DNA of 64,000 nucleotides from Knoellia subterranea KCTC 19937. GTDB taxonomy: Bacteria; Actinomycetota; Actinomycetes; Actinomycetales; Dermatophilaceae. Both the position numbers and the translations under genes were made by a program. Every line of letters starts with the position of its first letter. The first letter of the stretch is position 1. The notes under the pieces are model-generated. The model ran no database searches, had not been told where the DNA came from, and saw only the letters and a list, made by a program, of their open reading frames with translations. The stretch covers positions 496,001 through 560,000 of the forward strand of contig NZ_AVPK01000001.1 in the NCBI RefSeq assembly GCF_000768685.1. Reading direction: 5' to 3'. Shown one piece after another: positions 1,001-64,000 of the stretch.

Positions 1001-1443
1001 GACCGCACTCCCCCGTCGAGCGAACCGGGGTGGATCTCGTGGCGCGCGCGGACGTAGCCCGCGATCTGGCCGACCTGCATGAGGACGGTCTGCACGATGG
1101 CCGACAGGGCGAACGAGCGCCCGTCCAGCCAGTCCACACCGCGCAGCGCAAGCACGATGGCCACGATGACGATGAGCTGCCCGAGGTAGACGACGCCCGC
1201 TCCCGCCATCGACGTCGCGGCCGGTCCCATGACCACCGCGGTGATGCCGAGGAGCCCCACGATGAGGACCACGAAGACGGTCGCGGCACCCGCGAGAGCC
1301 GAGAGCGCACCGCGCTCACCGGCATACGCCCAGAAGATTCCGGCCAACACCGGAAGGGCGATCATCCCGGGGACGAGAGCACCGCGCAGCATCATCCGGA
1401 CCGGGGTCCGTGGCGCGCGATTCGTGGTCACTGGGCTCTCCAT
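997..1443 (-). CDS. ATP synthase protein I-like membrane protein
   Basis: 148 residues with about four hydrophobic segments (near residues 24-42, 48-70, 84-102 and 109-128) and a short basic N-terminus. As the first gene of the atp operon it corresponds to the AtpI-type protein found before atpB in actinobacteria, an accessory factor for c-ring assembly rather than a catalytic subunit. Sequence conservation in this family is weak, so the call rests on size, topology and gene order. A perfect TGTGA-N6-TCACA palindrome lies 20 nt upstream of its start. Confidence 0.7.
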   Translation of the reverse strand: MESPVTTNRAPRTPVRMMLRGALVPGMIALPVLAGIFWAYAGERGALSALAGAATVFVVLIVGLLGITAVVMGPAATSMAGAGVVYLGQLIVIVAIVLALRGVDWLDGRSFALSAIVQTVLMQVGQIAGYVRARHEIHPGSLDGGVRS

Positions 1444-1462
1444 CGAGGTCGTTCCGGGTGCT

Positions 1463-1478
1463 TGTGAAAACTATCACA
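1463..1478. promoter_or_regulatory. Crp/GlxR-type operator upstream of the atp operon
   Basis: TGTGA-AAACTA-TCACA, a perfect 5-bp inverted repeat with 6-nt spacer (7 bp if the flanking CT/AG is included). This equals the classical Crp/GlxR half-site arrangement. It lies in the 114-bp divergent region between the atp operon (minus) and the sugar transferase gene (plus), nearer the atp start. Regulation of F0F1 genes by GlxR is known in Corynebacterium; here the link is inferred. Confidence 0.65.
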
Positions 1479-1544
1479 AGCGTCCGGACGGGGACAAATG
1501 GGCACTCCCCGATGGGCGTCCCCGAGGGCGGCACCGGGTCCGCA

Positions 1545-1550
1545 TACACT
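1545..1550 (+). promoter_or_regulatory. -10 box, leaderless transcript of the sugar transferase gene
   Basis: TACACT ends 7 nt before the ATG at 1558, so transcription would begin at or next to the start codon. No Shine-Dalgarno sequence is visible, which supports a leaderless mRNA. Confidence 0.5.
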
Positions 1551-1557
1551 CACGGCC

Positions 1558-2955
1558 ATGAGACAGCGGCTCCTCGTCGGCATGGCCTGCGCAGACGCCG
1601 CACTCCTCTTCATTGCCTTCGTCATCGGGACTTACGTGCAGTTCGGGGGCCACCCGTTCGGCGATGAGGTCTTCATCGACACCCAGGCACGCGGGCTGCT
1701 CCAGATCCTGCTCATCTGCCTTGGCGGGTCACTCGTGGGCAGCGCCCTCGTGGCCGCGGTGATGCCGCACGGACCGCCCCGCCCGACCTACAGCCGCGGC
1801 TCGCTCGGTGCGCTCTTTGCCTTCTTCGTGATCACGGCCGTCATCGTGCTCGTCCGTCCGTACTACTCGCGGCCGCAGCTCTTCACGACCCTCGTCGTCT
1901 GGATCGTCCTCGTGCTGCTGTTGCGTGCGGCGCTGCGACTGCGCCCGTGGACCGAGCGCCTCGTGATCGTCACGAACTCCGACGCCATCGTGCGCGCGCT
2001 CGACGAGACGCCGCACATCACCGTGGTCGGCGTCATCGACCCGAACGCGACCGGTCCGCTGTCGGCTCCGCCGCTCGACACAGTCCTCACCGTCGACCTC
2101 AGCGCGCCGTGGTCACGGGAGGTCACCCGCTACGTCTCGGCCACGTCCGTCGCCGGACGGGAGGTGCGGCCCCTCAACGAGGTCTACGAACAGCACACCG
2201 GCCGCGTCCCGCTCGGGCACCTGTCGGAGGGATGGGAGATCGAGACCTCACTCCTGCGCAAGCTGCCCTTCCTGCCGTTCAAGCACGCCGTCGACCTCCT
2301 CCTCGTGATCCTCACGCTGCCCCTCTGGCTGCCCCTCATCGCCCTCGTCGCCGTCGTCGTGCGCGTGGCCGACGGCAGCCCGGTGATCTTCCGGCAGGTG
2401 CGCGTGGGACGCCGCGGCGAACTCGTCGAGCTCTTCAAGTTCCGCACCATGCGCGCCGACGCCGAGGAGCAGGGGGCGCGCCAGGCCACCGGTGACGACC
2501 CGCGCATCACGCCGATCGGCCACTTCCTGCGCAGCGTCCGCCTCGACGAACTCCCCCAGTTCTTCAACATCCTGCGCGGCGAGCTGTCGCTCATCGGCCC
2601 TCGGCCCGAGCAGGTGAGCTTCGTGGAGAAGTATCGCGAGGCGATCCCCTTCTACGACCAGCGCCACCTCGTCCGTCCCGGCATCACCGGCTGGGCCCAG
2701 GTGCGTCACGGCTATGCCGCGTCGGAGGAGGAGACGATCGAGAAGCTCTCCTACGACTTCTACTACCTCAAGCACATGTCGCCGCTCCTCGACCTCGAGG
2801 TGCTTGCCCGAAGCGTGTGGACGGTGGTGTCCGCATCGGGCACCAAGCCCAAGGCTCAGCCGTCTGCGGAGGAGGCCGCCGAGCTCGAGGTCGAGGCCCG
2901 GGAACAGCGCGTCGACGACGAACTCCACCCGAGGCGCGAGCGCCCCACCGGCTGA
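1558..2955 (+). CDS. polyprenyl-phosphate sugar-1-phosphate transferase (WbaP/CpsE type)
   Basis: 465 residues. The N-terminal half carries several membrane helices (about 5-25, 45-65, 80-100, 105-125). The C-terminal ~220 residues are a bacterial sugar transferase domain, with a further helix near 245, the segment KFRTMRADAEEQ near residue 295, then DDPRITPIGHFLRSVRLDELP, the core LSLIGPRPE and the final RPGITGWAQV block. Such enzymes move a sugar-1-phosphate from a nucleotide sugar to undecaprenyl phosphate, starting exopolysaccharide or glycoprotein synthesis at the inner membrane face. The in-frame ATG at 1498 is rejected because TACACT lies 7 nt before the ATG at 1558. The sugar specificity cannot be read from the sequence; the rhamnose genes at 35.8-39.2 kb may feed the same polymer. 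Confidence 0.9.
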   Translation: MRQRLLVGMACADAALLFIAFVIGTYVQFGGHPFGDEVFIDTQARGLLQILLICLGGSLVGSALVAAVMPHGPPRPTYSRGSLGALFAFFVITAVIVLVRPYYSRPQLFTTLVVWIVLVLLLRAALRLRPWTERLVIVTNSDAIVRALDETPHITVVGVIDPNATGPLSAPPLDTVLTVDLSAPWSREVTRYVSATSVAGREVRPLNEVYEQHTGRVPLGHLSEGWEIETSLLRKLPFLPFKHAVDLLLVILTLPLWLPLIALVAVVVRVADGSPVIFRQVRVGRRGELVELFKFRTMRADAEEQGARQATGDDPRITPIGHFLRSVRLDELPQFFNILRGELSLIGPRPEQVSFVEKYREAIPFYDQRHLVRPGITGWAQVRHGYAASEEETIEKLSYDFYYLKHMSPLLDLEVLARSVWTVVSASGTKPKAQPSAEEAAELEVEAREQRVDDELHPRRERPTG

Positions 2956-2970
2956 CCGGCCGCGAACAGA

Positions 2971-3005
2971 CGATTGCCCGCCGCCGGTGTGGCGACGGGC
3001 AATCG
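2971..3005. terminator. bidirectional hairpin terminator
   Basis: Arms 2971-2985 and 2991-3005 pair at 14 of 15 positions around a 5-nt loop. It lies between the convergent sugar transferase gene (plus) and glyA (minus) and can serve both. Confidence 0.75.
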
Positions 3006-3016: not shown

Positions 3017-4291
3017 TCAGCGCTGGTATGCCGGGAAGCGCGTCACGAGATCGGTCACCTCCGCGCGCACCTCCTTGGAGACTGCATGCTCCGGGTCCGC
3101 GTCGCCGTCGACGACAGCGCGAGCGATGAGGCCGCCGATGGTGCGCATCTCGTCCTCGCCCATCCCCTGCGTCGTCACGCACGGGGTGCCGACGCGGATA
3201 CCGCTCGCGATGTTGGGCTTCTGCGGGTCGAACGGGATGGCGTTCTTGTTGAGCGTGATCCCGGCCGCGTCGCAACGGGCCTCGGCGTCGGCGCCGGTGA
3301 CGAGCACCTGCTGGAGGTCGTGGAGCGACAGATGGGTGTCGGTGCCACCGGTCGTCGGGCGAATGCCCTTCTCCCCCAACGTCTCCGCGAGAACCTTGGC
3401 GTTGGCGATGACCTGCTTCGCGTAGGCCTGGTACTCCGGCGTCGCGCACTCCTTGAAGTTCGTCGCCTTGGCAGCGATCGTGTGCATCTGCGGACCGCCC
3501 TGCATCATCGGGAAGACGGCCTTGTCGATGGCCGCCTGGTGCTCGGCCTTGCAGACGATGGCGCCGGAGCGCGGGCCACGCAGGACCTTGTGCGTCGTGA
3601 AGCTCACGACGTCGGCGTGCGGCACCGGGCTCGGGATGGCCTTGCCGGCGACCAGACCGATGAAGTGCGCGGCGTCGACCCAGAAGATCGCACCGATCTC
3701 GTCGGCGACCCGACGGAAGAACTCGAAGTCGATGAGGCGCGGGATCGCGGAGCCGCCCGCGAGGATGACCTTGGGCTTGTGCTCCTTGGCCAGACGCTCG
3801 ACCTCGTCGTAGTCGATGTCCTCGGTGTCCTTGTCGACGCCGTAGTGCACCGCGTTGAACCACTTGCCGGAGAACGACATCTTCGTGCCGTGGGTCAGGT
3901 GGCCACCGTGCGGGAGGCTCATCGCGAGGATCGTGTCGCCGGGCGACATGAAGGCGCCGTAGACCGCCTGGTTGGCGCTCGCACCCGAGTGCGGCTGGAC
4001 GTTGGCGTGGTCGGCCTCGAAGAGCGCCTTGGCCCGCTCGATGGCCAGCGACTCGGCCTTGTCGACCTCGGAGCAGCCACCGTAGTAGCGGCGACCCGGG
4101 TAGCCCTCGGCGTACTTGTTGGACAGCGTCGAGCCCAGCGAGGTGAGGACGGCGGGCGAGGACATGTTCTCGCTCGCGATGAGCTGCAGGCCGCCACGCA
4201 GGCGGTCCAGCTCGGACACCAGCACTCCGGCAATCTCGGGGTCGAAGGCCTCCAACGCCCCGAAGTCCGAACCGTAGAACGTCTCACTCAT
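3017..4291 (-). CDS. glyA: serine hydroxymethyltransferase
   Basis: 424 residues. PLP enzyme interconverting serine plus tetrahydrofolate and glycine plus 5,10-methylene-THF, the main source of one-carbon units. Family landmarks: LIASENMSSPAVL near residue 40, YAEGYPGRRYYGGC near 60, HSGASANQAVYGAF near 100, and the PLP-lysine segment SFTTHKVLRGPRSG near 230. The start is ATG 4291 (MSETFYGSD), preceded by GAGGAGAG inside the end of the upstream Sua5 gene; the two coding regions overlap by 8 nt, so they are translationally coupled. The last codons contain a copy of the GTATGCCG word (3026-3033). Confidence 0.96.
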   Translation of the reverse strand: MSETFYGSDFGALEAFDPEIAGVLVSELDRLRGGLQLIASENMSSPAVLTSLGSTLSNKYAEGYPGRRYYGGCSEVDKAESLAIERAKALFEADHANVQPHSGASANQAVYGAFMSPGDTILAMSLPHGGHLTHGTKMSFSGKWFNAVHYGVDKDTEDIDYDEVERLAKEHKPKVILAGGSAIPRLIDFEFFRRVADEIGAIFWVDAAHFIGLVAGKAIPSPVPHADVVSFTTHKVLRGPRSGAIVCKAEHQAAIDKAVFPMMQGGPQMHTIAAKATNFKECATPEYQAYAKQVIANAKVLAETLGEKGIRPTTGGTDTHLSLHDLQQVLVTGADAEARCDAAGITLNKNAIPFDPQKPNIASGIRVGTPCVTTQGMGEDEMRTIGGLIARAVVDGDADPEHAVSKEVRAEVTDLVTRFPAYQR

Positions 4292-5298: not shown

Positions 5299-6159
5299 TC
5301 AGGCGCGGACGGCGACGGTTGCGCGTGGGCGACCGGTCAGGTCGAGGCGGTCCTCGACGTGGGACCACGATCCGGTGGCTCGCAACGCGGCCGGCAATGA
5401 CTCGCCCTGGCTGTCGGCATGTTCCATGACGAGCAGACCACCCGGCCTCAGCAGCCCGGCAGCCCGTGCGGCGACGAGTCGGGGAATCGCCAATCCGTCC
5501 TCACTGCCGCCATAGAGCGCGACGTGCGGGTCGTGGTCGCGGACCTCCGGGTCGATGGGCTCGGCGGTGGTCGGAATGTACGGCGGGTTGGACACGACGA
5601 CGTCGACGTCACCGACGAGGTCCTCGAAGGACACGATCGCGTCCCCCTGCACGAGGTCGATGTCGAGACCGAGCCGCTCACGGTTGCGTTGCGCCCACGC
5701 AACGGCGAGCTCGCTCAGCTCGACGGCATGGACTTCGGCCCCGGCAACCTCCGCCTTGATCGACAGCGCGATGGCGCCGGACCCGGTGCAGAGGTCGACG
5801 ACGACAGGCCTCTCGACGCCCGACTGGACGCAGCCACGCACCGCGTCGATCGCCCAGCCCGCGACGACCTCCGTCTCGGGTCGGGGCACGAAGACACCGG
5901 GACCCACCTCGAGCTCCAGACCACGGAACCAAGCCCTCCCCGTGAGGTGCTGGAGCGGAACGCGAGCTGCGCGCTCGGCCACGAGACCGGCATACCCCTC
6001 TGGTTCGGAACCACCGACGATCATGCGTCGCCGCACCTCACTGGCGTCCACGCCGAGGGCGTGCGCGGCGAGCGCGACCGCATCGTGGTCGGGCGAGGCG
6101 ACCCCGGCGTCGGCAAGCCGGCGCGACGCTTCGCGCACGGCCTCCCGCAGGTCGCTCAC
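5299..6159 (-). CDS. prmC: peptide chain release factor N5-glutamine methyltransferase
   Basis: 286 residues. Methylates the glutamine of the GGQ motif of release factors with S-adenosylmethionine. An N-terminal helical domain (about 1-75) is followed by a class I methyltransferase fold with [19 protein letters not shown] near residue 120 and the catalytic NPPYIP near 193. GTG 6159 overlaps the prfA stop (GTGA), so the enzyme is made coupled to its own substrate, the usual prfA-prmC arrangement. Confidence 0.95.
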
Positions 6160-7235
6160 GCGCCCTCGCCCAGCGCGGCCAGCCGGGCAGCCTCGTCGGC
6201 CGACATCGCCGACTCCACGACGGGGTCGAGCTCGCCGCCGAGGACGGTGTCGAGGTTGTAGGCCTTGAAACCGGTGCGGTGGTCGCTGATCCGGTTCTCG
6301 GGGAAGTTGTAGGTGCGGATGCGCTCGCTGCGGTCGACCGTGCGGACCTGGCTCGCCCTGATGTCGGCGCTGGCCGCGTTGGCCTCATCGACCGCCAGCT
6401 GGTGGAGGCGCGCCCGGAGCACACGCATCGCCGACTCCTTGTTCTGGAGCTGGCTCTTCTCGTTCTGGCAGGAGACGACCGTGCCCGTCGGGAGGTGGGT
6501 GATGCGCACCGCCGAGTCGGTCGTGTTGACGCTCTGACCGCCGGGACCGGACGAGCGGTAGACGTCGATCTTGAGGTCGTTCGGGTCGATCGTCACCTCG
6601 ACCTCCTCGGCCTCGGGCATGACCCAGACGCCGGCCGCGCTCGTGTGGATGCGACCCTGCGTCTCGGTCACGGGGACACGCTGCACGCGGTGGACCCCAC
6701 CTTCGTACTTGAGGCGGGCCCACGGTCCCTCGCCCGGCATCGGGTGGCCGCGACTCTTGACGCTCACCTGCACGTCTTTGTAGCCGCCGAGGTCGGTCTC
6801 GGTGACGTCGAGGACCTCGGTGCGCCAGCCGCGCTGCTCGGCGTAGCGGAGATACATCCGCAGGAGGTCGCCGGCGAAGAGCGCTGACTCGTCGCCGCCC
6901 TCACCCGCCTTGACCTCGAGGATGACGTCGCGGTCGTCGTCCGGGTCACGCGGGATGAGGAGTCGACGCAGGTGCTCGGCGGCGTCGTTCGCCGCCTGCT
7001 CGAGGGCGGGGACCTCCGTTGCGAAGGTCGCATCCTCCGCCGCAAGCTCGCGGGCCGCGTCCAGGTCGTCGGTCGCGGACTTCCATGCGGCGTATGCCGT
7101 CACGGTCGGTCCCAGCGCGGCGTACCTCTTGTTGATCTCACGGAGACGGTCCGGGTCGGACGCGACCGCCGGGTCGGCCATCTGCAGTTCGAGCTCGGCG
7201 TGCTCGTCGGCCTGGGCCTGGGCTGACTCGAACAT
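6156..7235 (-). CDS. prfA: peptide chain release factor 1
   Basis: 359 residues. Recognises UAA/UAG stop codons and triggers peptidyl-tRNA hydrolysis. The catalytic GGQ is in [20 protein letters not shown] (near 230), and the codon-recognition loop carries [10 protein letters not shown] (PVT, the RF1 type, rather than the SPF of RF2) with the HTSAA segment after it. Length is normal. It lies downstream of rpmE but is separated by a terminator, so it probably has its own promoter in the 128-bp gap. Confidence 0.97.
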
Positions 7236-8769: not shown

Positions 8770-9957
8770 TCACGGGAGGTTGGCGAAGGCCTTGTCGAGA
8801 TCGGCGAGGACGTCGTCCACGCACTCGAGCCCCAGCGAGAGCCGCAACAGGTCGGCGTCCGGGCGAGCATCGTCGGCGACAAGGCGGTGGGTGAGGCTCG
8901 CCGGGTGCTGGATGAGGCTGTCCACACCGCCGAGGGACACGGCGTGGGTCACGAGCTCGAGGCGTTCGAGCAGTGCCGACGCCGCGGCATACCCTCCGGC
9001 GAGGCGGAAGGCGACGAGGGCACCCGCCCCGGCCATCTGCCGTCCCAGCAGACCGAGCGGGTCGCCTCCGGGCAGCCCGGCATAGTGCACACGACTCACC
9101 TCGGGCCGCTCCGCAAGCCACGCGGCCACCGTGGCCGCCGACTCCTGCTGCGCCCGCACCCGCACGTGGATCGTCTGGAGTCCGCGGTGCAGCTCGTACG
9201 CCGCCAGCGGATGCAGCACCGCCCCGGTGATGGCGCGGATCTGACGCAGCAGCGCAGTCCACTCGTGGTCGGCGGCGACGACGCCGCCCATGACGTCACC
9301 GTGCCCGCCCATGAACTTCGTGGCCGAGTGCAGCACGAGCGTGGCGCCGTGCACCGCCGGCTGCTGGAGCACCGGGGTGGCGAAGGTGTTGTCGACCGCG
9401 ACCGGCACGTCACCTGCCTGCGCGACGATCGCTGCGATGTCGACGAGGTCGAGCGACGGGTTCGCCGGCGTCTCGACGAGGACGAGTCCGGTGTCGGGTC
9501 GGATCGCCCCACGCACCGTCCCTGGCTCGGCCCACGTGACCTCGGTCCCGAGGAGACCTGTGGCGAGCAGATGGTCGGACCCTCCATAGAGGGGCCGGAC
9601 GGCCACGACGTGCGGCTTGCCCGCTGCGACGGCCGCGAGCAGCGCGGCGGTGAGGGCCGCCATCCCACTCGCGAACGCCACGGCACCGTGCGTCTGCTCG
9701 AGGGTGGCGACGGCGCGCTCGAACCGGTCGACCCCGGGGTTCCACAGCCGTTGGTAGACATACGTCGCTTCACCGTCCGGCCGCTCCCCCGCACCGATCG
9801 TGTCGTATGCCGTCCCGCCGGCTTCGATGGTCGGCATCGGATACGTCGTGGCCAGGTCGATGAGGGGCACGTGCAGCCCGAGCGCGGTGAGGTCCTCGCG
9901 ACCGGCGTGGACGGCGAGAGTGGCGTGGTCGGGGCGCGGGTACGACGTCGTTGTCAT
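8770..9957 (-). CDS. Cys/Met-metabolism PLP-dependent enzyme (cystathionine/methionine gamma-lyase or synthase)
   Basis: 395 residues, the normal length. PLP lysine in HSATKFMGGHGDVMGG (near residue 213), preceded by VDNTFATPVLQQP, and PLP-phosphate contacts in FASGMAALTAALLA near 100. The family covers cystathionine gamma-synthase, cystathionine and methionine gamma-lyases and O-acetylhomoserine sulfhydrylase; the sequence does not settle which. The divergent Lrp/AsnC gene, with a palindrome between them, is the arrangement seen for amino-acid-induced catabolic lyases, which favours a lyase. ATG 9957 (MTTTSYPRPDH) was chosen because the upstream extension runs through the putative operator. 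Confidence 0.85.
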   Translation of the reverse strand: MTTTSYPRPDHATLAVHAGREDLTALGLHVPLIDLATTYPMPTIEAGGTAYDTIGAGERPDGEATYVYQRLWNPGVDRFERAVATLEQTHGAVAFASGMAALTAALLAAVAAGKPHVVAVRPLYGGSDHLLATGLLGTEVTWAEPGTVRGAIRPDTGLVLVETPANPSLDLVDIAAIVAQAGDVPVAVDNTFATPVLQQPAVHGATLVLHSATKFMGGHGDVMGGVVAADHEWTALLRQIRAITGAVLHPLAAYELHRGLQTIHVRVRAQQESAATVAAWLAERPEVSRVHYAGLPGGDPLGLLGRQMAGAGALVAFRLAGGYAAASALLERLELVTHAVSLGGVDSLIQHPASLTHRLVADDARPDADLLRLSLGLECVDDVLADLDKAFANLP

Positions 9958-12687: not shown

Positions 12688-12719
12688 CGGCATACCCGAA
12701 AAAACGGTGATGTATGCCG
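12688..12719. terminator. hairpin made of an inverted GTATGCCG pair
   Basis: CGGCATAC (12688-12695) and GTATGCCG (12712-12719) pair perfectly (9 bp with the flanking A/T) around a 16-nt loop containing AAAAAA. It lies 5 nt after the GNAT stop. First of three such paired copies. Confidence 0.7.
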
Positions 12720-14948: not shown

Positions 14949-15878
14949 TCACGAGGTGAGGACTTCAACTCCGTGGTCGGGTATGCCGGGTTGCAGCACC
15001 CGCCACCCCTCACCTCCGTGGCCGACGACGTCACCTGCGGTCGACGTCGTCGCGAGCACGAGAACGGAGGGACCCGCACCCGAGATCACGGCGGCGTGGC
15101 CAGCCGCCCGCAACGAGTCCACGAGCGCCATCGAATCGGGGTACGACGGCCGGCGAGGCTCCTGGTGGAGCCATTCGCGCGTGCCCGCGAGCAGGTGCTC
15201 GGGCGCGTCAGTGACCGCCCGGACGAGGAGCGCCGCCCGAGCGGAGTTGGCGGCTGCGTCACCGAGCCGGACCTGGGCCGGGAGAACTGCGCGCGCCGTC
15301 GCGGTCGACAGCTGGGTCGCAGGACTGAACACGACCGGGACGACGTCGGGGTGCGGGGTGAGCCGCAGCGTTGACGTGCCCAGGGCCGGATCGTCGGACC
15401 ACGACAGGGTCAGTCCGCCGAAGACGCTGGCCGAGGAGTTGTCCGGGTGTCCCTCCAGCCGCGCGGCAAGGTCATTGATGCGGTTCAGGTCGATGACTCC
15501 GGGCGTACCGTCCTGCTGGCCTGCCAGGGCGTGCGCCAGCGCGATGCCCGTCACGATGGCCGTCGCCGACGAACCCATGCCTCGCCCGTGCGGGACCTCG
15601 TTGTGGCACTCGATCCTCAGCCCGGTGGGTGCGCTCCGGCCCAGGTCCTCGAAGGCGTGCACGAAACTCCGGTGGACGAGGTGGGACTCGTCCTGCGGCA
15701 CCGCACCGGCGCCTTCACCGGCAACCGTGACCTCGAGACCCGGAGTGTCGAGAACCGTTGCGCGACAACGGTCCCAGACGCCGAGGGCGATGCCGATCGA
15801 GTCGAATCCGGGACCCAGGTTGGCGCTGCTCGCGGGGACACGCACACCCGCGCTGGTGCCGGGCCGCCACTCCCCCAC
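14949..15878 (-). CDS. thrB: homoserine kinase
   Basis: 309 residues, GHMP kinase family. Phosphorylates homoserine for threonine synthesis. Landmarks: VPASSANLGPGFDSIGIALG near residue 12, the ATP-binding HGRGMGSSATAIVTG near 90-105, and the C-terminal ISGAGPSVLVLA. The start is GTG 15878, which begins 2 nt after the thrC stop; the in-frame sequence further upstream reads through thrC antiparallel to its frame. Last of the thr genes before rho. Confidence 0.94.
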   Translation of the reverse strand: MGEWRPGTSAGVRVPASSANLGPGFDSIGIALGVWDRCRATVLDTPGLEVTVAGEGAGAVPQDESHLVHRSFVHAFEDLGRSAPTGLRIECHNEVPHGRGMGSSATAIVTGIALAHALAGQQDGTPGVIDLNRINDLAARLEGHPDNSSASVFGGLTLSWSDDPALGTSTLRLTPHPDVVPVVFSPATQLSTATARAVLPAQVRLGDAAANSARAALLVRAVTDAPEHLLAGTREWLHQEPRRPSYPDSMALVDSLRAAGHAAVISGAGPSVLVLATTSTAGDVVGHGGEGWRVLQPGIPDHGVEVLTS

Positions 15879-15880
15879 GA

Positions 15881-16969
15881 TCAGCTCTCGAAGCCGAGGA
15901 CCTCGGCGACGGCCTGCGCCTCGGCAGTGACGCGGACCGGCTCGATGTCGGTGCCGTCGGCGGTGCGCAACGCCCATTGCGGGTCCTTGAGCCCGTGGCC
16001 CGTGACGGTGCAGACGATGGTGGCATCGCGGGGCACCTCACCACGCTCACTCGCCTGAAGCAGTCCGGCGATGCTCGCCGCCGATCCGGGCTCGACGAAG
16101 ACGCCCTCGGTGGACGACAGGAGGCGGTGCGCCGCCAGGATCTGCTCGTCCGTGACCGACTCGATGCGCCCACCGGACTGGTCGCGGGCCTCCTCGGCCT
16201 GGCGCCACGACGCGGGGTTGCCGATGCGGATCGCCGTCGCGATGGTCTCGGGATCGTCGATGGGGTGGCCGAGGACGATCGGGGCGGCCCCAGCCGCCTG
16301 GAACCCCCACATCTGCGGCGTGCGGGTCGCGACCGGTGCCAGGCCCCACGTCTCGGTGGCGTACTCGGTGTAGCCGCGCCAGTAGGCGGTGATGTTGCCG
16401 GCGTTCCCGACGGGCAGCACGTGGATGTCCGGAGCGTCACCGAGCGCGTCCACGACCTCGAAGGCCGCGGTCTTCTGGCCCTCGATGCGGGCTGGGTTGA
16501 CCGAGTTCACGAGCTCGACCGGGTGGACCTCGGCGAGCTTGCGGGCCACGGTCAGGCAGTTGTCGAAGTTGCCGTCGACCTGGATCAGGGTGGCGCCGTG
16601 GGCGATGGCCTGACTCAGCTTGCCCATGGCGATCTTGCCCTCGGGCACGAGAACCGCGCAGGTCATGCCGGCCTTCGTGGCGTAGGCCGCGGCGGACGCG
16701 CTCGTGTTGCCGGTGCTCGCACAGATCACGGCCTTGGCACCGCGACCCTTGGCATAGGAGATGGCGGTGGTCATCCCTCGATCCTTGAACGACCCGGTCG
16801 GGTTGAGGCCTTCGTACTTCACGAAGACGTTCGCGCCGACGAGCTCGGAGAGGTGCTGGGCCTCGATGAGGGGCGTCCCTCCCTCGTGCAGGGTCACGAC
16901 CGGCGACTCGGCCAGCATCGGCAGGCGGTCGGCATACTCGCGGATCACTCCGCGCCACTGGTGTGCCAT
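15881..16969 (-). CDS. thrC: threonine synthase
   Basis: 362 residues. PLP enzyme converting O-phosphohomoserine to threonine. PLP lysine in [13 protein letters not shown] (near 60) and the cofactor-phosphate loop GNAGNIT (near 190). ATG 16969 comes 1 nt after the hom stop, so hom-thrC-thrB form one coupled operon. The short form (about 360 residues) is the type found in actinobacteria and Bacillus. Confidence 0.96.
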
Positions 16970-18356: not shown

Positions 18357-19792
18357 GACTCCCCGACGTCGAGAGCGAGCAGGTCGTCGATGGTCTCACG
18401 GCGCACGATGACCCGTGCCTTGCCGTCTCGGACCGCGAGCACCGGTGGTCGCGGGGTGTGGTTGTACTGGCTCGACAGGGCCCGGCAGTAGGCACCCGTG
18501 CCCGGCACCGCGATGAGGTCGCCGGGCTGCGTGTCCGCCGGAAGCCACTCGTCCTGGACGACGATGTCGCCGCTCTCGCAGTGCTTGCCCACGACGCGGG
18601 CCAGCATCGGCTCGGCATCGGAGTAGCGGTTCGCGAGGGTGCACGAGTAGTCGGCCTCGTAGAGGGCCGGGCGCACGTTGTCGCTCATCCCGCCGTCGAC
18701 GGAGACGTAGGCACGGGCGTGGTTGTCGCCGAGATCGACCTGCTTCACGGTGCCGACCTCGTAGAGCGTGAACGTCGATGGACCGACGATGGCACGACCG
18801 GGCTCGATGGACACACGAGGCACCTTCGCGAGGTCACCGTCACCGATCGCTTTGAACTCACGCCCCACGATGTCCGCGAGCTGCTCACCGAGCAGCGCGG
18901 GCGAGAGCGGGGTGTGCTGGGAGGTGTAGGCCATGCCGAAGCCACCGCCGAGATCGATCTCGGGACTGTGGTGGCCCAACTCATCGGCGATCTGCGCGTG
19001 CAGGCCGATCAAGCGGCGGGCGCTCATCTCGAAGCCGCCCGTGTCGAAGATCTGACTACCGATGTGGGAGTGCAGACCGCGCAGCTCGAGGCTGTCGTGG
19101 GAAAGCACGGCCCGGGCCGCATCGAGGGCCTGACCACCGGAGAGGCTGAAGCCGAACTTCTGGTCCTCATGACCCGTGGCGATGAACTCGTGCGTGTGCG
19201 CCTCGACGCCGACAGTCACGCGGATCATCACCGGTGCGACGACGCCCAACTCTGCGGCGATAGCCGCCACTCGCTCGATCTCGATGAACGAGTCGACGAC
19301 GATCCGGCCCACGCCGTAGTCCAGAGCCGCCCGGATCTCGTCGAGCGACTTGTTGTTGCCATGGAAGCCGATGCGCTCCGCCGGGAAGCCCGCTCTGCGC
19401 GCGACGGCGAGCTCGCCGCCACTGCACACATCGAGCGAAAGTCCTTCTTCTGCAACCCATTTCGCGACGGCGGTGCACAGGAAGGCCTTGCCGGCGTAGT
19501 AGACGTCCGCTCCTCCGCACACCGTGTCGAACGCGCCCGCGAAGTCGTCGCGGAACGCTCTCGCCCGCGCGCGGAAGTCGCCCTCGTCGAGCACATAGGC
19601 GGCCGTCCCGAACTCCTCCGCGATCGCAACCACGTCGAGTCCCGCAACCTGCACGCGGCCCTCGGCGTCACGGCATACGGAATCCGGCCACAGCTGCGGA
19701 AGCAGCGCGTTGACGTCGCTCGGGAAGGGCAGATAGAGCGGCGGGCCGCCATAACCCTCGGCGTGGAGCGCCCCGGCCTCGTGCGAACGCAT
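18353..19792 (-). CDS. lysA: diaminopimelate decarboxylase
   Basis: 479 residues. Fold-III PLP enzyme converting meso-diaminopimelate to lysine. PLP lysine K102 in DVYYAGKAFL, HGNNKS near 165, HSHIGSQIFD near 243, and the GGGFG phosphate loop near 290. Located between argS and hom, the arrangement known from corynebacteria and other actinobacteria. The distance to the argS stop is 11 nt. Confidence 0.96.
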   Translation of the reverse strand: MRSHEAGALHAEGYGGPPLYLPFPSDVNALLPQLWPDSVCRDAEGRVQVAGLDVVAIAEEFGTAAYVLDEGDFRARARAFRDDFAGAFDTVCGGADVYYAGKAFLCTAVAKWVAEEGLSLDVCSGGELAVARRAGFPAERIGFHGNNKSLDEIRAALDYGVGRIVVDSFIEIERVAAIAAELGVVAPVMIRVTVGVEAHTHEFIATGHEDQKFGFSLSGGQALDAARAVLSHDSLELRGLHSHIGSQIFDTGGFEMSARRLIGLHAQIADELGHHSPEIDLGGGFGMAYTSQHTPLSPALLGEQLADIVGREFKAIGDGDLAKVPRVSIEPGRAIVGPSTFTLYEVGTVKQVDLGDNHARAYVSVDGGMSDNVRPALYEADYSCTLANRYSDAEPMLARVVGKHCESGDIVVQDEWLPADTQPGDLIAVPGTGAYCRALSSQYNHTPRPPVLAVRDGKARVIVRRETIDDLLALDVGES

Positions 19793-26586: not shown

Positions 26587-26655
26587 GGACCGCCTCACCG
26601 CGGGCGCGGAGCCGGATTCAGGGGCCGGTTCCCACCGCGGTGAGGACACGAAAAG

Positions 26656-26700
26656 ACGAGCCGGTATGCCGGGTGCGAGCCACCCGGCATACCGGCTCGT
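26656..26700. terminator. strong hairpin containing an inverted GTATGCCG pair
   Basis: Perfect 20-bp stem (26656-26675 with 26681-26700) and 5-nt loop, followed by TTCGTT. The stem holds GTATGCCG (26664-26671) and CGGCATAC (26685-26692). It separates the ABC operon from kgd. Confidence 0.88.
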
Positions 26701-35793: not shown

Positions 35794-37664
<1,871 letters not shown>

Positions 37665-44710: not shown

Positions 44711-45333
44711 GACGAGACCTCCTTGCCGAAGCCGCGCTCGGCGGCATACTCCGTCAGCATTTCGCGGAGCTGGCGCCGTCCGCGGTGCAGGCGCGACATC
44801 ACGGTGCCAATGGGCGTGCCCATGATGTCGGCGATCTCCTTGTAGGCGAAGCCCTCGATGTCCGCGAGGTAGACCGCCATCCGGAAGTCCTCCGGCAGTT
44901 CCTGGAGCGCACGCTTGATCTCGGTGTCCGGCAGGTGATCGAGCGCCTGGGCCTCGGCCGACTTCAGTCCGGTGCTGGTGTGCGACTCCGCGCGGGCCAG
45001 CTGGTAGTCCTCGACCTCGGCGGCATCGGACTGGAGCGGCTCGCGCTGCTTCTTGCGGTAGCTGTTGATGTAGGTGTTGGTGAGGATCCGGTACATCCAC
45101 GCACGCAGGTTGGTGCCGGGCTTGTACTGGTGGAACGCCGCGAAGGCCTTGGCGTAGGTCTCCTGCAGCAGGTCCTCGGCATCGGCCGGGTTGCGCGTCG
45201 TGCGCATCGCGGCGGCGTAGAGCTGGTCGAGCAGGGGCAGCGCCTCGGCCTCGAACCGGGCCTGCCGCTCGGCGGGGGTCTCGGTGGCGACGTCCACGGT
45301 CGGCTCGTCGCTGGTGGTCTGTGGAGTGGTCAT
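44707..45333 (-). CDS. sigR: ECF sigma factor, SigR/SigH type
   Basis: 208 residues. Region 2 with [17 protein letters not shown] (near 48) and [20 protein letters not shown] (near 78), and region 4 with [18 protein letters not shown] (near 155) and [15 protein letters not shown]. This is the thiol-oxidative-stress sigma factor of actinobacteria, controlled by the downstream anti-sigma factor. TAGGGT lies 8 nt before ATG 45333. The regulon neighbourhood (SRAP, aroA, rsgA, hisN-type) is the usual context. Confidence 0.93.
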
Positions 45334-46042: not shown

Positions 46043-46675
46043 CTAGAGCAGCGACTCGACGAAAGCCACCGCCGCCTCGGCGAGTGGACCCGTCGCCCTG
46101 ATCGTGTGCTCACCCTTCACTGCGGTGACGTATGCCGGGTCGGCCAGTTCCGCGCGCACCTCACCGGGCGTGCCGAACGGGTCCCGCTCCCCCTGGATCA
46201 CGTGCAGCGGGATCTCGGCCGCGACCGGAAGACGCAGTTCGTCGGCGCGGGACACCTCCGGCTTGCCCGGCGGGTGCAGCGGGAACGACAGGCACAGGAC
46301 CCCGTCGGCCCCGAGGTTGGCAGCAGTCCGGCAGGCCACACGCGCTCCGTTGCTCTTGCCCGAGAGCACGAGCGGACCGGGGAGCTTGCCGCGGCCGCTA
46401 CGCAACGTCTCCACGATCGGCAGCCAGGCCTCGTCCTGCGGAACGGGACGCGGCGGCATACGCCGTCCTGCGACGCCCCACGCCTGCTGCACGAACGCGA
46501 CGGCCCAGCCGGCACCCACGAGTCCGTCCCTGGCGGCGAGGAGGTCGGCGCCGGAGAGGCGGCCGCTTGCTCCGTGGGTGAGCACGACGGTGCCTCGGGC
46601 ACGCGGCGGGCGTGAAACGTGGGCGTGGGCCGGCCCCAGTGGGGTGTCGATCTCGACGAGCCGTGCCGCGGTCAT
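46043..46675 (-). CDS. alpha/beta hydrolase (dienelactone-hydrolase/KANL3-Tex30-like)
   Basis: 210 residues. Oxyanion-loop region [13 protein letters not shown] near 32, nucleophile in [14 protein letters not shown] (Ser near 108), acid in IQGERDPFG (near 164) and catalytic His in GEHTIR (near 190). A cytoplasmic serine hydrolase of unknown substrate. ATG 46675 overlaps the SRAP stop (ATGA), so the pair is cotranscribed. Confidence 0.85.
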
Positions 46676-47514
46676 GCCGGCGACCCGATGATCTCGCCGG
46701 TCATGGGATCGACCACTCCGTGCAACTCGCTGGCGGGCAGGGGGTCGAGGAGCTGGGGGCCGTTGGATCGGTTGCTGCTCACCGCCCGAGAGACGGGGTA
46801 TGCCGTGAAGCGCCCCGCCGCGTGGGGCTCGAGCAGGGCCGCGATCCGGTCGAGGTCGGTCAGCCCCGGGTCGAGCCACGAGGACCACTCGTCCGCCTCG
46901 AGGACGAGCGGCTGGCGGTCGTGGATGCGATCCAGCCCGGGCTCGGCCTCTGTCGTGATGATGGTGAAGGTCGTGAGCCAGGCGGCCGGATCGTCGTTGT
47001 CGGCGACGGCGGGGTCGCGCCAGAACTCGTAGAGCCCGGCGAAGGCGCAGCTCGCTCCATCGGCTCGCGAGGTGAAGAAGGGCTGCTTGAGCGGCTTGCC
47101 CTTGGCGTCGGTCGCCGTGGGCGACACCTGCCACTCGTACCACCCCTGAGCCGGGACGATGCAGCGCCGACGCGCGGCGGCCTTGGCGTATGCCGGTTTG
47201 TCCAGCACCGATTCGGCGCGGGCGTTGATCATCCGCACCCCTGACTTCGGGTCCTTGGCCCAACTCGGGACGAGGCCCCAGGTGAGCAGCCGCAATTGAC
47301 GCGTGGGGTCCGCGGAGTCGTCGCCGCGTGGGGTGCGCGTCAGCACGACCGGCGCCTGCTTGGTCGGTGCCATGTTGTGGTCGGGCGTGGCCGGAGGGGG
47401 CGACTGCGGGTTGACGAGGACGCTCCGCGTCGGATCGGTCGTGCGGTCGTCGTCCACCTCGAACTCGAGGGTCAACTCGTCAGGGTTGGCCGTGGCCGCG
47501 TATCGCCCGCACAT
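46672..47514 (-). CDS. SRAP-family protein (HMCES/YedK, abasic-site DNA-protein crosslinker)
   Basis: 280 residues. Catalytic Cys2 after Met removal (MCGRYAATA), the Asn/Arg segment RMINARAESV (near 95), WYEW (near 125) and the conserved His in RIHDRQPLVLE (near 208). SRAP proteins bind single-stranded DNA and form a thiazolidine crosslink with abasic sites, shielding them. The start is fixed by the required Cys2 and by TAGATT 7 nt upstream. Confidence 0.94.
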   Translation of the reverse strand: MCGRYAATANPDELTLEFEVDDDRTTDPTRSVLVNPQSPPPATPDHNMAPTKQAPVVLTRTPRGDDSADPTRQLRLLTWGLVPSWAKDPKSGVRMINARAESVLDKPAYAKAAARRRCIVPAQGWYEWQVSPTATDAKGKPLKQPFFTSRADGASCAFAGLYEFWRDPAVADNDDPAAWLTTFTIITTEAEPGLDRIHDRQPLVLEADEWSSWLDPGLTDLDRIAALLEPHAAGRFTAYPVSRAVSSNRSNGPQLLDPLPASELHGVVDPMTGEIIGSPA

Positions 47515-50576: not shown

Positions 50577-50612
50577 GGTATGCCGCCCGCTCGGGTGAGC
50601 GGACGGCATACC
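50577..50612. terminator. hairpin made of an inverted GTATGCCG pair
   Basis: Arms 50577-50592 and 50597-50612 pair at 15 of 16 positions, preceded by AAAAAG. The outer halves are GTATGCCG (50578-50585) and CGGCATAC (50604-50611). It faces the convergent dppF-type gene. Confidence 0.85.
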
Positions 50613-57677: not shown

Positions 57678-59036
57678 TCAGTTCGGGACGACTGTCACCG
57701 AGCCGAGTTCCAGACCTTCGATGCCGTCGCGCAGCGACGCCGCGTCCCCGACCACGACGATGACCCACTCCCCCGTCACGACTTCGGCGTATGCCGTCCG
57801 CAACCGTTCGTCGTCCAGCTCACCCATGCGTTGCAGCGTCCGTGTCTGGAAGTCGAGGGGAAGGTGCTCGATGGCCAGCGCAGAGGCCTCGTCCGCAACT
57901 GCGTCCGCCGTGGCATAGCGCCCCGGTGCGGTTTGGACGACGAAGTCGATGCCAGAGCGAATCTCCCTGTCCGAGAACCCTTCTCGCGCCTTCGCCAGGA
58001 TGTCCACCAGGAGCCGGAGGGCATCGACGGTGGCATCGGCTCGCACTGAGCCCGAGGTCACGAAGGACCCTCCCCGGGCACGCGGCCGGAACCCCGCACG
58101 GATGCCGTAGGTGTAGCCCTTGTCCTCGCGCAGCACCGCGTCGACACGTGCGCTCGGCGATCCCCCGACGATGAAGGACAAGACGGGGTAGGGCTCCCAG
58201 CCCGACGGCGCGGAACGGTCGGGTCCGGGTGCGGCGACGATGAGTTCGCTCTGGACCGAGCCGGGCCGGTCCACGAGGACGACCCGGGTCCCCCCTCCAG
58301 CCGGGAGCGGCGCCCGAACCGGGGACGGCTCCACGTGCGAGGAGTTGTGCCAGGACCCCAGGCCGGTCTCGACGACGTGCGGGACGTCGAGTCCGGTGAG
58401 ATCCCCGGCCACGACAAGAGTCGCGCCCCGAGGCCCGACGTGGGCCCGGTGGAACTCCACGATGTCGTCGCGGGTCAGGGCCCTGATCGACGCGACCGTT
58501 CCCCCTGTCGGGCGGGATGCCCGTTCGGAGGATGCCCAGAGTTGCGACGTCATCTCGCGGGCTCCACGGTGAGGTGCCGAGGCGCGCTCCTGCTCGATCT
58601 CGGCGAGGCGGCTCCGGAGGATGCGCCGCACCTCCGCCTCGGGGAATGCCGGCTCCGCGAGGGCCTGCCGCATCAGATCGAGCGCCTGCGGCAGGAACCG
58701 CTGTGGCACGTCGACGTCGACGCTCAGCGCGCCATCGGTGACCGATGCCCCGAGGACCATGCCGGTCCGCTCCATCAGCTCGGCGAACTCGTCGCTCGTG
58801 TGCTGAGCCGTGCCCTCGTCGAGCAGTCGCGCCGTCATCACCGCGACACCCTCCCGGTCCAGCGGCTCGTCTGCGAGGGACAGGGGCACGACGAGACGCA
58901 AGGAGATCACGTACTGGCCGGGAACGGCATACGAAAGAACGCGAATTCCGTTGTCCGTCAGGGACTCTGACGGCATCGGGAAGGCCCAGGCCTCGGGAGG
59001 CGTGACGTCCGGGCGGGGCAGTGCGGCGGCGCTCAC
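57678..59036 (-). CDS. M16-family peptidase-like protein, probably inactive subunit
   Basis: 452 residues, two M16 domains. The HxxEH zinc motif is absent; the C-terminal half keeps the YGIRAGFRPR-type R/Y segment (near 330) found in M16 partners. It resembles the regulatory subunit of M16B heterodimers, with the catalytic subunit encoded immediately upstream. GTG 59036 overlaps the partner's stop (GTGA), forcing equal synthesis. Confidence 0.88.
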   Translation of the reverse strand: MSAAALPRPDVTPPEAWAFPMPSESLTDNGIRVLSYAVPGQYVISLRLVVPLSLADEPLDREGVAVMTARLLDEGTAQHTSDEFAELMERTGMVLGASVTDGALSVDVDVPQRFLPQALDLMRQALAEPAFPEAEVRRILRSRLAEIEQERASAPHRGAREMTSQLWASSERASRPTGGTVASIRALTRDDIVEFHRAHVGPRGATLVVAGDLTGLDVPHVVETGLGSWHNSSHVEPSPVRAPLPAGGGTRVVLVDRPGSVQSELIVAAPGPDRSAPSGWEPYPVLSFIVGGSPSARVDAVLREDKGYTYGIRAGFRPRARGGSFVTSGSVRADATVDALRLLVDILAKAREGFSDREIRSGIDFVVQTAPGRYATADAVADEASALAIEHLPLDFQTRTLQRMGELDDERLRTAYAEVVTGEWVIVVVGDAASLRDGIEGLELGSVTVVPN

Positions 59037-60331: not shown

Positions 60332-60378
60332 CGTGGCGGGTCGGGCGTCGTTGAGAAACCCTCGCGTATGCCGGCCGC

Positions 60379-62809: not shown

Positions 62810-62862
62810 GCCGCCCATTGTTCACAAGGGCCTGCCTCATCAAGCACGTCTGCCCCGACAAA

Positions 62863-62898
62863 CGACAAAGGACCTACGTTGCCGTAGGTCCTTTGTCG
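62863..62898. terminator. terminator after the initiator tRNA
   Basis: Perfect 16-bp stem (62863-62878 with 62883-62898), loop TTGC, with AAAG/CTTT near the base. On the minus strand it follows the tRNA by 22 nt. Confidence 0.85.
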
Positions 62899-62920
62899 TC
62901 GATGTCTCGCGACATCACAT

Positions 62921-62997
62921 TGGTAGCGGGGGCAGGATTTGAACCTGCGACCTCCGGGTTATGAGCCCGGCGAGCTACCGAGCTGCTCCACCCCGCG
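62921..62997 (-). tRNA. initiator tRNA-fMet (anticodon CAT)
   Basis: 77 nt including encoded CCA. Acceptor CGCGGGG with an unpaired first base (C1 opposite U72), three consecutive G-C pairs (GGG/CCC) closing the anticodon stem around CTCATAA, and T loop TTCAAAT. These are initiator features. Confidence 0.95.
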
Positions 62998-63067
62998 TCG
63001 GGTGAGTGACCTTGCGGCCTCTCGGTACCCCTAGGTTACGTGACGGTGGCGTGAGCGCCAAATCGGT

Positions 63068-64000
63068 TCAGGGAGAAGGGCTTGGCGTCGGTGTCGGAGT
63101 CGCGCTTCCGGACGGTGCGGGCGTCTGGGTGAGCTGCGGGCTCAGCGCAGCAGCCCTGGCAATGGCGTCCTGGAGATCCTTCTGCGCTTCACCGTATGCC
63201 GCGAAGTCACCCTTCTTGAGTGCCGCCTGACCGGCGGCGTTGGCCGCCTCGATGTCACGGATCACCTCGGCCAACTGGGCGCTCGGTGGCGTGGTCGTGG
63301 GAGTGCCCGGTGTGGTGGGCGTCGGAGTTTCCGTTCCTGTTCCACTGTCGCCCGCGGTCGCTCCCGAGTTGCCACCGAAGAGGCCATCGAGGGCCTGGTC
63401 GAGCGTCTCGCCCCACGCGATGCGCTTGCCGAAGACCGCCACGGTGGCCTTGTTCTGGGGGAACGAACCACCCTCTCGCGACGCCTGCACATACATCGGC
63501 TGGACGTACAGCAGGCCCTCCCCGACGGGCAGGGTGAGGAGGTTGCCGTACGTCAGCTGCTTGCCGGACTGGCGGTTCTGCGCGATGAACTGGCTGAGGT
63601 TGAGCGGTTCGGACGGGCTCTGCGACCGCGCCGTCGAGACCTCGATCTGGTTCTGGACCTGACCCGGGCCGTCGACGGCGGAGTTGCGAGGCAGCTCGAG
63701 CAGCCGCATCTTGCCGTAACTCTCGGCCGGCTTGCCCTCGCTCGATCCGGCGTCGGCATCAACCGCGAGGAAGCCGCGAAGGATCTCTCGACCGCTTCCG
63801 GCCGGGATGAACGTCGAGGTGAGCGAGAACGCCGGCGCCTGCTGGTCCGGCATGGCCAGCGACTGGTAGTAGACCGGCTGGTCCTGCGTCGCGTGCGTCG
63901 GGTCCTTCGGCACGCTCCAGAAGTCGCCACCGCCGTAGAACGAGTCGGCGTCGGTGACGTGGTAGCGGGCGAGCAACTGGCGCTGGACCTTGAAGAGGTC
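63068..64000 (-). CDS. UPF0182-family membrane protein (partial; N-terminus beyond window)
   Basis: C-terminal 310 residues; the frame stays open to the window end (DLFKVQRQLLARYHVTDADS at the edge). Family features: FYGGGDFWSVPKDP, LVPVGEG-like LTLPVGEGLLYVQPMYVQ (near the middle) and KIAWG-type FGKRIAWGETLDQAL. The visible part is the extracytoplasmic region; the several N-terminal membrane helices lie outside. The end is a Thr/Pro-rich linker, a short helical segment (AAGQAALKKGDFAAYGEAQK) and a TPTPTPSPSP tail. Function of the family is unknown. Confidence 0.88.
   Translation of the reverse strand, partial: DLFKVQRQLLARYHVTDADSFYGGGDFWSVPKDPTHATQDQPVYYQSLAMPDQQAPAFSLTSTFIPAGSGREILRGFLAVDADAGSSEGKPAESYGKMRLLELPRNSAVDGPGQVQNQIEVSTARSQSPSEPLNLSQFIAQNRQSGKQLTYGNLLTLPVGEGLLYVQPMYVQASREGGSFPQNKATVAVFGKRIAWGETLDQALDGLFGGNSGATAGDSGTGTETPTPTTPGTPTTTPPSAQLAEVIRDIEAANAAGQAALKKGDFAAYGEAQKDLQDAIARAAALSPQLTQTPAPSGSATPTPTPSPSP

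What the first reader, a model, noticed from the sequence alone, without database searches (positions are those of the whole stretch)
1320..63201. A strongly over-represented octamer, GTATGCCG, behaves like a DNA uptake sequence in an actinobacterium
I count 35 exact copies in 64 kb. With about 70 % GC the expectation is roughly two (0.35^5 x 0.15^3 x 128,000 positions on both strands). The word is non-palindromic and split almost evenly between strands (19 and 16), which argues against strand-biased Chi or KOPS signals. It occurs in several reading frames: Tyr-Ala (TAT GCC, most often), Gly-Met-Pro in argS, Gly-Ile with the very rare ATA codon in the ABC ATPase (25156), Pro-Ala-Tyr in glyA, Arg-His in sodX. 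So the conserved unit is DNA, kept at the cost of rare codons. Near-misses are much rarer than exact copies. Copies are spread over core genes about every 1-2 kb, with two long gaps (26.7-34.4 and 50.6-57.8 kb). Established knowledge: uptake sequences in Neisseriaceae and Pasteurellaceae show exactly these properties (overabundance, no strand bias, inverted pairs in terminators). I know of none reported in Actinobacteria. Alternatives are a nucleoid or segregation motif or a DNA-modification target.
Basis: partly seen in the sequence, partly recalled or inferred. Interest (0 to 1): 0.88.

Follow-up and report, generated by a model that had tools for sequence, protein, structure and literature searches.

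The report
Self-marking DNA word in Knoellia
Thousands of copies of one eight-letter DNA word, with genus-specific dialects, mark the genomes of a family of actinobacteria, and they look like tags that let these bacteria recognise and take up DNA of their own kind, something so far reported only in two families of Gram-negative bacteria.

Summary
GTATGCCG occurs 35 times in the window (shuffles 0.86) and 2,444 times in the genome (reversed word 54). The host is a Knoellia, by ArgS identity. The word is enriched in 83 of 149 sampled genomes of its family and in none of 361 sampled from 18 other families of the order. It shows no strand bias, exceeds codon-corrected expectation in all six frames, forms inverted pairs, and is about tenfold depleted in islands inserted in tad. 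Relatives use dialects: GTATGACG, GAATGCCG, GGATGCCG; the Janibacter/Marihabitans clade uses an unrelated word, CGAAGGGGG, in 11 of 11 genomes. ComEC and TadE are found in 56 of 56 genomes tested. The tad operon is repeatedly split by islands, most with a recombinase; in this genome by a 14-kb island. Best reading: a DNA-uptake sequence working with a Tad/Flp competence pilus. Uptake is untested, no receptor was found, and two Knoellia without TadF still carry about 2,540 copies each.

The parts
1320..1327 (-). GTATGCCG copy
3026..3033 (+).
5988..5995 (-). GTATGCCG copy
7092..7099 (+). GTATGCCG copy
8985..8992 (-). GTATGCCG copy
9805..9812 (+). GTATGCCG copy
12688..12695 (-). GTATGCCG copy, left arm of intergenic inverted pair
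12712..12719 (+). GTATGCCG copy, right arm of intergenic inverted pair
14981..14988 (+). GTATGCCG copy
16930..16937 (-). GTATGCCG copy
19671..19678 (-). GTATGCCG copy
21118..21125 (+). GTATGCCG copy (argS)
21274..21281 (-). GTATGCCG copy (argS)
23479..23486 (+). GTATGCCG copy
25156..25163 (-). GTATGCCG copy (in called gene 24773-25792)
26664..26671 (+). GTATGCCG copy, left arm of a 20-bp perfect intergenic hairpin
26685..26692 (-). GTATGCCG copy, right arm of the hairpin
34428..34435 (+). GTATGCCG copy
35896..35903 (+). GTATGCCG copy
36306..36313 (-). GTATGCCG copy
37941..37948 (+). GTATGCCG copy
39149..39156 (+). GTATGCCG copy
40891..40898 (-). GTATGCCG copy
42541..42548 (-). GTATGCCG copy
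44742..44749 (-). GTATGCCG copy
46130..46137 (+). GTATGCCG copy
46454..46461 (-). GTATGCCG copy
46798..46805 (+). GTATGCCG copy
47188..47195 (+). GTATGCCG copy
50578..50585 (+). GTATGCCG copy, left arm of intergenic hairpin
50604..50611 (-). GTATGCCG copy, right arm of intergenic hairpin
57789..57796 (+). GTATGCCG copy
58925..58932 (-). GTATGCCG copy
60366..60373 (+). GTATGCCG copy (outside called genes)
63194..63201 (+). GTATGCCG copy

Best explanation
GTATGCCG is a DNA-uptake sequence (self-DNA tag) of Knoellia and much of its family (Dermatophilaceae in GTDB; that name is recalled). Shown here: an exact, strand-neutral DNA word, about one per 1.5 kb, enriched beyond codon usage, with genus-level dialects, and nearly missing from mobile islands. 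Inferred: a Tad/Flp competence pilus (tadA-tadB-tadC-flp-tadE-tadF-tadG, beside a prfB-like gene in many relatives) with ComEA/ComEC binds DNA carrying the word through an unidentified surface receptor. Taken-up fragments recombine, so copies accumulate by biased uptake, and receptor changes create dialects or, in the Janibacter/Marihabitans clade, a wholly new word.
For: Count and strand symmetry: (84,630 vs 84,776 copies over the 83 enriched genomes). Codon-controlled excess in all six frames, 4x to 84x. Inverted pairs: 16 of 16 (own sample) and 9 of 10 (G065) neighbour pairs within 60 bp, stems up to 22 bp. Dialects and a word swap, genome-wide; word states follow a tree of the Tad proteins (8 changes vs a shuffled mean of 14.8, 0 of 1000 shuffles as low). 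Window sites kept in congeners more often than other 8-mers, with turnover between genera. Islands in tad: 5 words vs 48.7 expected in 78.4 kb from 9 genomes. Machinery: ComEC 56 of 56, TadE 56 of 56, ComEA at 21 of 22 comEC loci. Absence of TadF goes with absence of a known word (3 of 18 word-positive without TadF, 94 of 131 with). tadA is in two pieces on one contig in 11 of 149 genomes, and islands lie between tadC and flp in 5 more; 9 of 9 scanned recombinase-like genes beside such breaks are 8 large serine recombinases and 1 tyrosine integrase. Competence genes are disrupted this way in other bacteria (PMC4774983, passages). In Micrococcus luteus both tad clusters are needed for transformation (PMC4322843, section 8).
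Against: No uptake or transformation data for any member: one library search on Janibacter found 0 papers, and the 10 rows shown of 111 name neither Knoellia nor Intrasporangiaceae. In this genome tadA is itself split by a 14-kb island. Congeners G017 and G092 lack TadF and an intact tadA but keep 2,535 and 2,541 copies; G047 and G087 lack a TadA match at 1e-80 and are word-rich. Genera with tad and comEC but no known word exist (g2, g11, g24). No Tad pilin tracks the dialects. Conservation of sites is less clear against composition-matched words (13 of 24, 11 of 26, 15 of 22, 4 of 12 kept) and when counted from the congeners' side (9 of 16 for K. locipacati vs 13 of 24 for matched words). Close pairs of CGAAGGGGG are inverted in only 9 of 17. 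Depletion in islands would hold for any host word not yet spread into recent arrivals. The TadF association is not corrected for phylogeny, drafts may miss genes, and G118 (no TadF, 99 words per Mb) falls just under my cut of 100 per Mb.
Confidence: 0.77

Rival explanations
1. A recombination or chromosome-organising site: a Chi-like octamer read by a RecBCD/AdnAB-type enzyme, or a nucleoid-protein site.
For: Chi-like sites are also exact octamers, frequent, and differ between lineages (recalled). The genome-wide spread fits.
Against: No leading/lagging bias: 129 vs 117 in 18 of 20 samples of G065 (summed by hand; p) and 84,630 vs 84,776 overall. No visible rise towards origin or terminus in those samples. 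Close pairs are almost all inverted and can form hairpins. Density is higher between genes.
Confidence: 0.1
2. A DNA-modification target or product of biased mismatch repair (like the cyanobacterial HIP1 word, recalled), kept by a methylase or a Vsr-like enzyme.
For: Explains symmetry and lineage-specific words; methylases vary between genera (recalled).
Against: The word is not a palindrome. Restriction targets are usually avoided, not enriched 28-fold (recalled).
Confidence: 0.07
3. A transcription-terminator or regulatory element.
For: Inverted pairs form strong hairpins between genes (-43 kcal/mol at 26655-26700). Convergent intergenic spaces are densest (2.07 per kb in G000, 1.29 in G065).
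Against: 186 of 254 copies lie in called genes in the own sample, and most copies are single. Copies in genes are enriched whatever the frame.
Confidence: 0.03
4. Codon usage, composition or a dispersed mobile repeat.
For: 156 of 184 copies wholly inside called genes of the own sample use two of the six frames (84 and 72).
Against: Codon-controlled expectation is exceeded 4x to 84x in every frame. Flanks are unrelated. Sites turn over between genera.
Confidence: 0.01

Closest known systems
DNA uptake sequence (DUS) of Neisseriaceae with ComP receptor
   Same: Thousands of copies, inverted pairs acting as terminators, dialects around a conserved core, some genera without it (PMC3630211 and PMC12616744, passages).
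   Different: Unrelated sequence, high-GC Gram-positive host, no type IVa pilus marker (PilM in 2 of 56 genomes, not in this one), receptor unknown, uptake untested.
Uptake signal sequence (USS) of Pasteurellaceae
   Same: Short enriched word, inverted pairs, lineage types (PMC12616744, passages).
   Different: Unrelated sequence and phylum; two types there (same passages), here four related words and one unrelated word.
Tad/Flp-pilus natural transformation of Micrococcus luteus
   Same: [quoted passage not shown] loci here).
   Different: The phrase 'uptake sequence' does not occur in that paper's main text.
Mobile elements that disrupt competence genes (comK, comYC, comFA, comM)
   Same: Islands split a competence-type gene at several sites (PMC4774983, passages).
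   Different: The target is tadA and the rest of a tad operon; 8 of the 9 recombinases scanned are large serine recombinases.
HIP1 of cyanobacteria, Chi, KOPS (recalled)
   Same: Very frequent short genome words.
   Different: HIP1 is palindromic; Chi and KOPS are strand-biased; GTATGCCG is neither.

Membership tests
DNA uptake sequence (DUS/USS) | Strong genome-wide over-representation of one exact word | tested here: met
   2,444 vs 54 reversed control; 236 vs 8.4 Markov in 383.6 kb
DNA uptake sequence (DUS/USS) | No strand or replichore bias | tested here: met
DNA uptake sequence (DUS/USS) | Inverted pairs forming hairpins between genes | tested here: met
   16 of 16 and 9 of 10 pairs within 60 bp inverted; 12 of 18 pairs within 80 bp intergenic in G000. 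For CGAAGGGGG only 9 of 17 inverted
DNA uptake sequence (DUS/USS) | Dialects following phylogeny | tested here: met
   tree of Tad proteins
DNA uptake sequence (DUS/USS) | Depleted in recently acquired DNA | tested here: met
   5 vs 48.7 in 78.4 kb of islands from 9 genomes
DNA uptake sequence (DUS/USS) | Competence machinery encoded in the genome | tested here: inconclusive
   ComEC, ComEA and tad genes present, but tadA is split in the own genome
DNA uptake sequence (DUS/USS) | Preferential uptake or transformation of word-bearing DNA | not testable with these tools
   needs a bench assay
DNA uptake sequence (DUS/USS) | Sequence-specific surface receptor | tested here: inconclusive
   no Tad pilin separates the dialects
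Neisserial DUS with ComP and type IVa pilus | Type IVa pilus present | tested here: not met
   PilM family found in 2 of 56 genomes, not in G000
Chi/KOPS | Leading-strand bias | tested here: not met
   129 vs 117 (summed by hand)
HIP1-like palindromic word | Palindrome | tested here: not met
   GTATGCCG is not self-complementary (reverse complement CGGCATAC)

The most novel reading that the evidence does not exclude
A third, independently evolved self-DNA recognition system, the first in Gram-positive bacteria and the first tied to a Tad pilus, with point-mutated dialects (core ATGNCG) and one complete replacement of the word (CGAAGGGGG in the Janibacter/Marihabitans clade), locked in conflict with mobile elements that disarm it by inserting into the tad operon.
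Probability: 0.62. Interest if true: 0.95.

Novelty: new variant of a known kind. Interest (0 to 1): 0.92.

Why it matters
[quoted passage not shown] A third case in a distant phylum, with another pilus type, would show that sequence-marked bacterial sex evolves repeatedly. Its dialects, and one full word swap within a family, offer a natural experiment for finding receptors and for testing whether such words limit gene flow. The tad insertions would extend the known conflict between mobile elements and competence to actinobacteria.

Tried and rejected
Receptor search: presence/absence of ComEC, PilM, TadE, TadF and TadA, a ComEA alignment and pilin divergence against TadB/TadC divergence gave no candidate; residual differences were small. 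I first took the C28 tad cluster (L095) for the conserved one; the conserved locus of this genome is at C1, about 410-429 kb. A longer repeat was rejected: flanks are not conserved. Word counts pooled over orthologous named loci are confounded by shared genes and served only as a lead (they gave the Janibacter word). Exact direct repeats at island ends were 5-9 bp. One search counted g17, g26, g37 and g38 as word-negative; one search corrects the TadF table (2 of 18 becomes 3 of 18). GTATGACG was counted in 56 genomes and GAATGCCG and GGATGCCG in 47, so the rest are untested for these words. GTACGCCG/GTACGACG in G040 is unconfirmed. One search timed out and was rerun. Alignment A1 held an accidental 3-base row and was replaced by A2. 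Paper searches for an actinobacterial uptake sequence: one search found 0; I saw listings only (20 of 103, 20 of 44, 10 of 111, 15 of 21, 10 of 47 rows) and no title or abstract start reporting such a word; (the word as letters) had 3,142 papers, 20 listed, none on uptake by title.
Full report
1. Observation. GTATGCCG occurs 35 times in the 64-kb window, 19 on + and 16 on -, against a mean of 0.86 and a maximum of 3 in 100 dinucleotide shuffles. In the whole genome (3,566,056 bases, 33 contigs) there are 1,233 + and 1,211 - copies; the same letters read backwards give 22 and 32. In a 383.6-kb sample it is the most over-represented octamer (236 vs 8.4 expected, order-2 Markov). The word is exact: each of its 24 one-mismatch neighbours is rarer, and together they sit at chance, 271 vs 295 expected in G000 and 261 vs 260 in G065. 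Nothing beyond the eight bases is fixed; in the own sample the next base is T in 52% of copies.

2. Host. The window's ArgS is 94% identical to Knoellia locipacati, 92% to Knoellia sp. Soil729 and 84% to K. remsis and K. aerolata (best 80 of 581 relatives kept). Congener G111 has a contig of 221,062 bases like the K. remsis record. The host is therefore a Knoellia; the GTDB family name Dermatophilaceae is recalled.

3. Spread. Of 149 genomes sampled from the family, 83 carry at least 100 copies per Mb (my cut); 26 genera are uniformly enriched, 22 not at all and 5 mixed. Among 396 genomes of the order, 361 belong to 18 other families and none reaches that cut; the highest count, in G426, is 180 against a reversed control of 195. 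In named loci of 12-22 kb, Knoellia (4 of 4) and Pedococcus (2 of 2) have 8-18 copies and two unclassified MAGs 22 and 12. Four Phycicoccus have 5, 0, 0 and 0. Janibacter (6 loci), Marihabitans, Kytococcus, Mobilicoccus, Kribbia and two Nostocoides have 0 or 1, Segeticoccus 2. 55 loci of other families have 21 copies in 1.15 Mb.

4. No strand bias. In G065, a congener with a 4.22-Mb contig and a dnaA-like gene at about 2.75 Mb, 18 of 20 samples of 20 kb give 129 leading-strand and 117 lagging-strand copies. The sums are by hand, with the terminus assumed opposite and the two ori/ter samples left out; p=0.48. Over the 83 enriched genomes forward and reverse totals are 84,630 and 84,776.

5. Selection acts on DNA, not on protein. 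Gene calls come from a simple caller written here. Against an expectation that keeps the amino acids and the genome's codon usage, the word is enriched in all six frames: 4x to 71x in the own sample, 4x to 84x in G065. Density is higher between genes (0.90 vs 0.55 per kb; G065 0.94 vs 0.63). Of neighbouring copies within 60 bp, 16 of 16 and 9 of 10 are inverted, with stems up to 22 bp; the pair at 26664/26685 is a perfect 20-bp hairpin of about -43 kcal/mol.

6. Evolution. In aligned DNA, window copies are kept in four congeners in 9 of 11, 12 of 13, 9 of 10 and 4 of 7 cases, where any 8-mer is kept in 29-34% and words of the same composition with TAT or ATA in 13 of 24, 11 of 26, 15 of 22 and 4 of 12. 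Counted from the congeners' side the shares are lower: 9 of 16, 12 of 14, 9 of 14 and 4 of 8 (matched words 13 of 24, 11 of 19, 15 of 37, 4 of 11). Between genera (two Pedococcus) only 2 of 8 and 2 of 9 are kept, near the 21-22% baseline, although Pedococcus has a similar density. So sites turn over while the word is kept.

7. Dialects. GTATGACG reaches 1,954 copies in G027, 1,557 in G003, 834 in G004 and 597 in G011, but 23 in this genome (56 genomes). GAATGCCG: 3,135 in G012, at most 388 in the other 46 tested. GGATGCCG: 3,816 and 3,838 in the two g17 genomes tested and 3,949 in G026; the other 44 have 260-1,336, so this word has a high background (571 in this genome). These words share ATGNCG. 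A codon-shuffled null supports GAATGCCG (39 vs 2.1) and GGATGCCG (30 vs 6.1; 20 vs 3.0). In genera g37 and g38, which lack GTATGCCG, an unrelated 9-mer, CGAAGGGGG, has 1,265-1,939 copies in 11 of 11 genomes and at most 80 in the other 138. It lies on both strands and is denser between genes (2.16 vs 0.55 per kb, orthologous loci pooled), but only 9 of 17 close pairs are inverted, far less one-sided than GTATGCCG. On a midpoint-rooted tree of TadA/B/C from 34 genomes word states change 8 times; 1,000 shuffles average 14.8 with a minimum of 9.

8. Machinery. I chose 56 of the 149 genomes. ComEC and TadE are found in 56 of 56, word-positive or not; PilM of type IVa pili in 2 of 56, not in this one. 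ComEA was found at 21 of 22 comEC loci, several as truncated calls; the G065 locus gave none. An operon tadA-tadB-tadC-flp-tadE-tadF-tadG is complete in 13 of 19 fetched loci, and a prfB-like gene lies in 12 of the 19, often followed by ftsE/ftsX-like genes (prfB and ftsE/X named by my reading). In this genome TadE, the Tad domain and the TadA piece match Pfam, while flp and tadF do not and are named by likeness to the M. luteus sequences quoted in PMC6370729 (passages). The order matches the M. luteus tad clusters, both of which are needed for transformation (PMC4322843; passages and section 8). TadF is missing in 18 of 149 genomes. 3 of these 18 carry a known word, against 94 of 131 with TadF (Fisher p=1e-5; by genus 1 of 6 against 34 of 47, p=0.014). 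This has no phylogenetic correction, and G118 (no TadF, 99 copies per Mb) sits just below the cut. TadA is absent at 1e-80 in 18 of 149, three of them enriched.

9. Conflict. tadA lies in two pieces on one contig in seven genomes, this one included (residues 1-232 and 225-407, 14 kb apart), and in four more on closer look (G111, G120, G130, G136). In five others (G048, G069, G078, G088, G113) an island lies between tadC and flp or parts tadABC from flp. I scanned nine recombinase-like genes beside such breaks: eight are large serine recombinases, one a tyrosine integrase; a tenth protein, inside the island of this genome, is an IS110 transposase, and I scanned no serine recombinase there. In nine word-positive genomes these islands hold 5 words where 48.7 are expected (78.4 kb, Poisson P=2e-15, genome mean density); the flanks in the same loci hold 35 against about 45 (flank sums by hand). 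The island of G130 was not in that count; by hand it would add 1 against about 4.6. Mobile elements disrupting comK, comYC, comFA and comM are documented (PMC4774983, passages). By analogy this suggests that the pilus serves transformation.

10. What does not fit neatly. The own tad operon is broken, and G017 and G092 lack TadF and an intact tadA yet keep 2,535 and 2,541 words. I read this as recent loss, but another system could use the word. G026 is rich in GGATGCCG, has tadA, but no TadF match. Genera with tad and no known word exist (e.g. g2, g11, g24). No pilin sequence tracks the word. Uptake has not been measured.

11. Verdict. The word behaves like a DNA-uptake sequence in most respects that sequence can test, but the defining assay, preferential uptake, is not available. 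It is not a member of the ComP/type IVa system. If confirmed it would be a new variant of a known kind, independently evolved.

Noticed in passing
Janibacter/Marihabitans loci L162, L165, L166, L169, L170, L171, L173; L036, L037; 11 genomes of g37 and g38: An unrelated 9-mer CGAAGGGGG at 1,265-1,939 copies per genome stands in place of GTATGCCG in this clade.
   Followed up: yes
G000:C1:413538-428775 (L240), and L241-L258: The conserved tad operon is an insertion hot spot for islands, at several positions in tadA and between tadC and flp, most with a large serine recombinase or an integrase beside the break.
   Followed up: partly
L240:8272-13191 (island inside tadA of this genome; methylase also at L007:18275-19942): The island carries an N6/N4 DNA methylase (Pfam) and beside it a 920-residue reading frame with a P-loop-like start (gene call only): possibly a restriction-modification system.
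   Followed up: no
L038, L138 (G040): GTACGCCG and GTACGACG are moderately enriched against a codon-shuffled null (33 vs 6.4, 24 vs 5.7): possible further dialect, not counted genome-wide.
   Followed up: partly
G001 (g2): GGATGCCG has 1,336 copies, the highest of the 44 genomes outside g17 and g26 tested, with a reversed control of 310: possibly a weak or decayed dialect.
   Followed up: no
L095 (G000:C28, about 347-356 kb): A second tad-type cluster with TadA/B/C relatives and a TadE match, not orthologous to the conserved one.
   Followed up: no
L261 (G026:C1:2427001-2433000): TadA, TadB and TadC are present but no Flp, TadE, TadF or TadG relative was called in this 6-kb stretch, although the genome is rich in GGATGCCG.
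   Followed up: no
L031 (G023:C1:1-20000): TCGAACTG and overlapping words occur 21-29 times in 20 kb, probably a local coding repeat.
   Followed up: no
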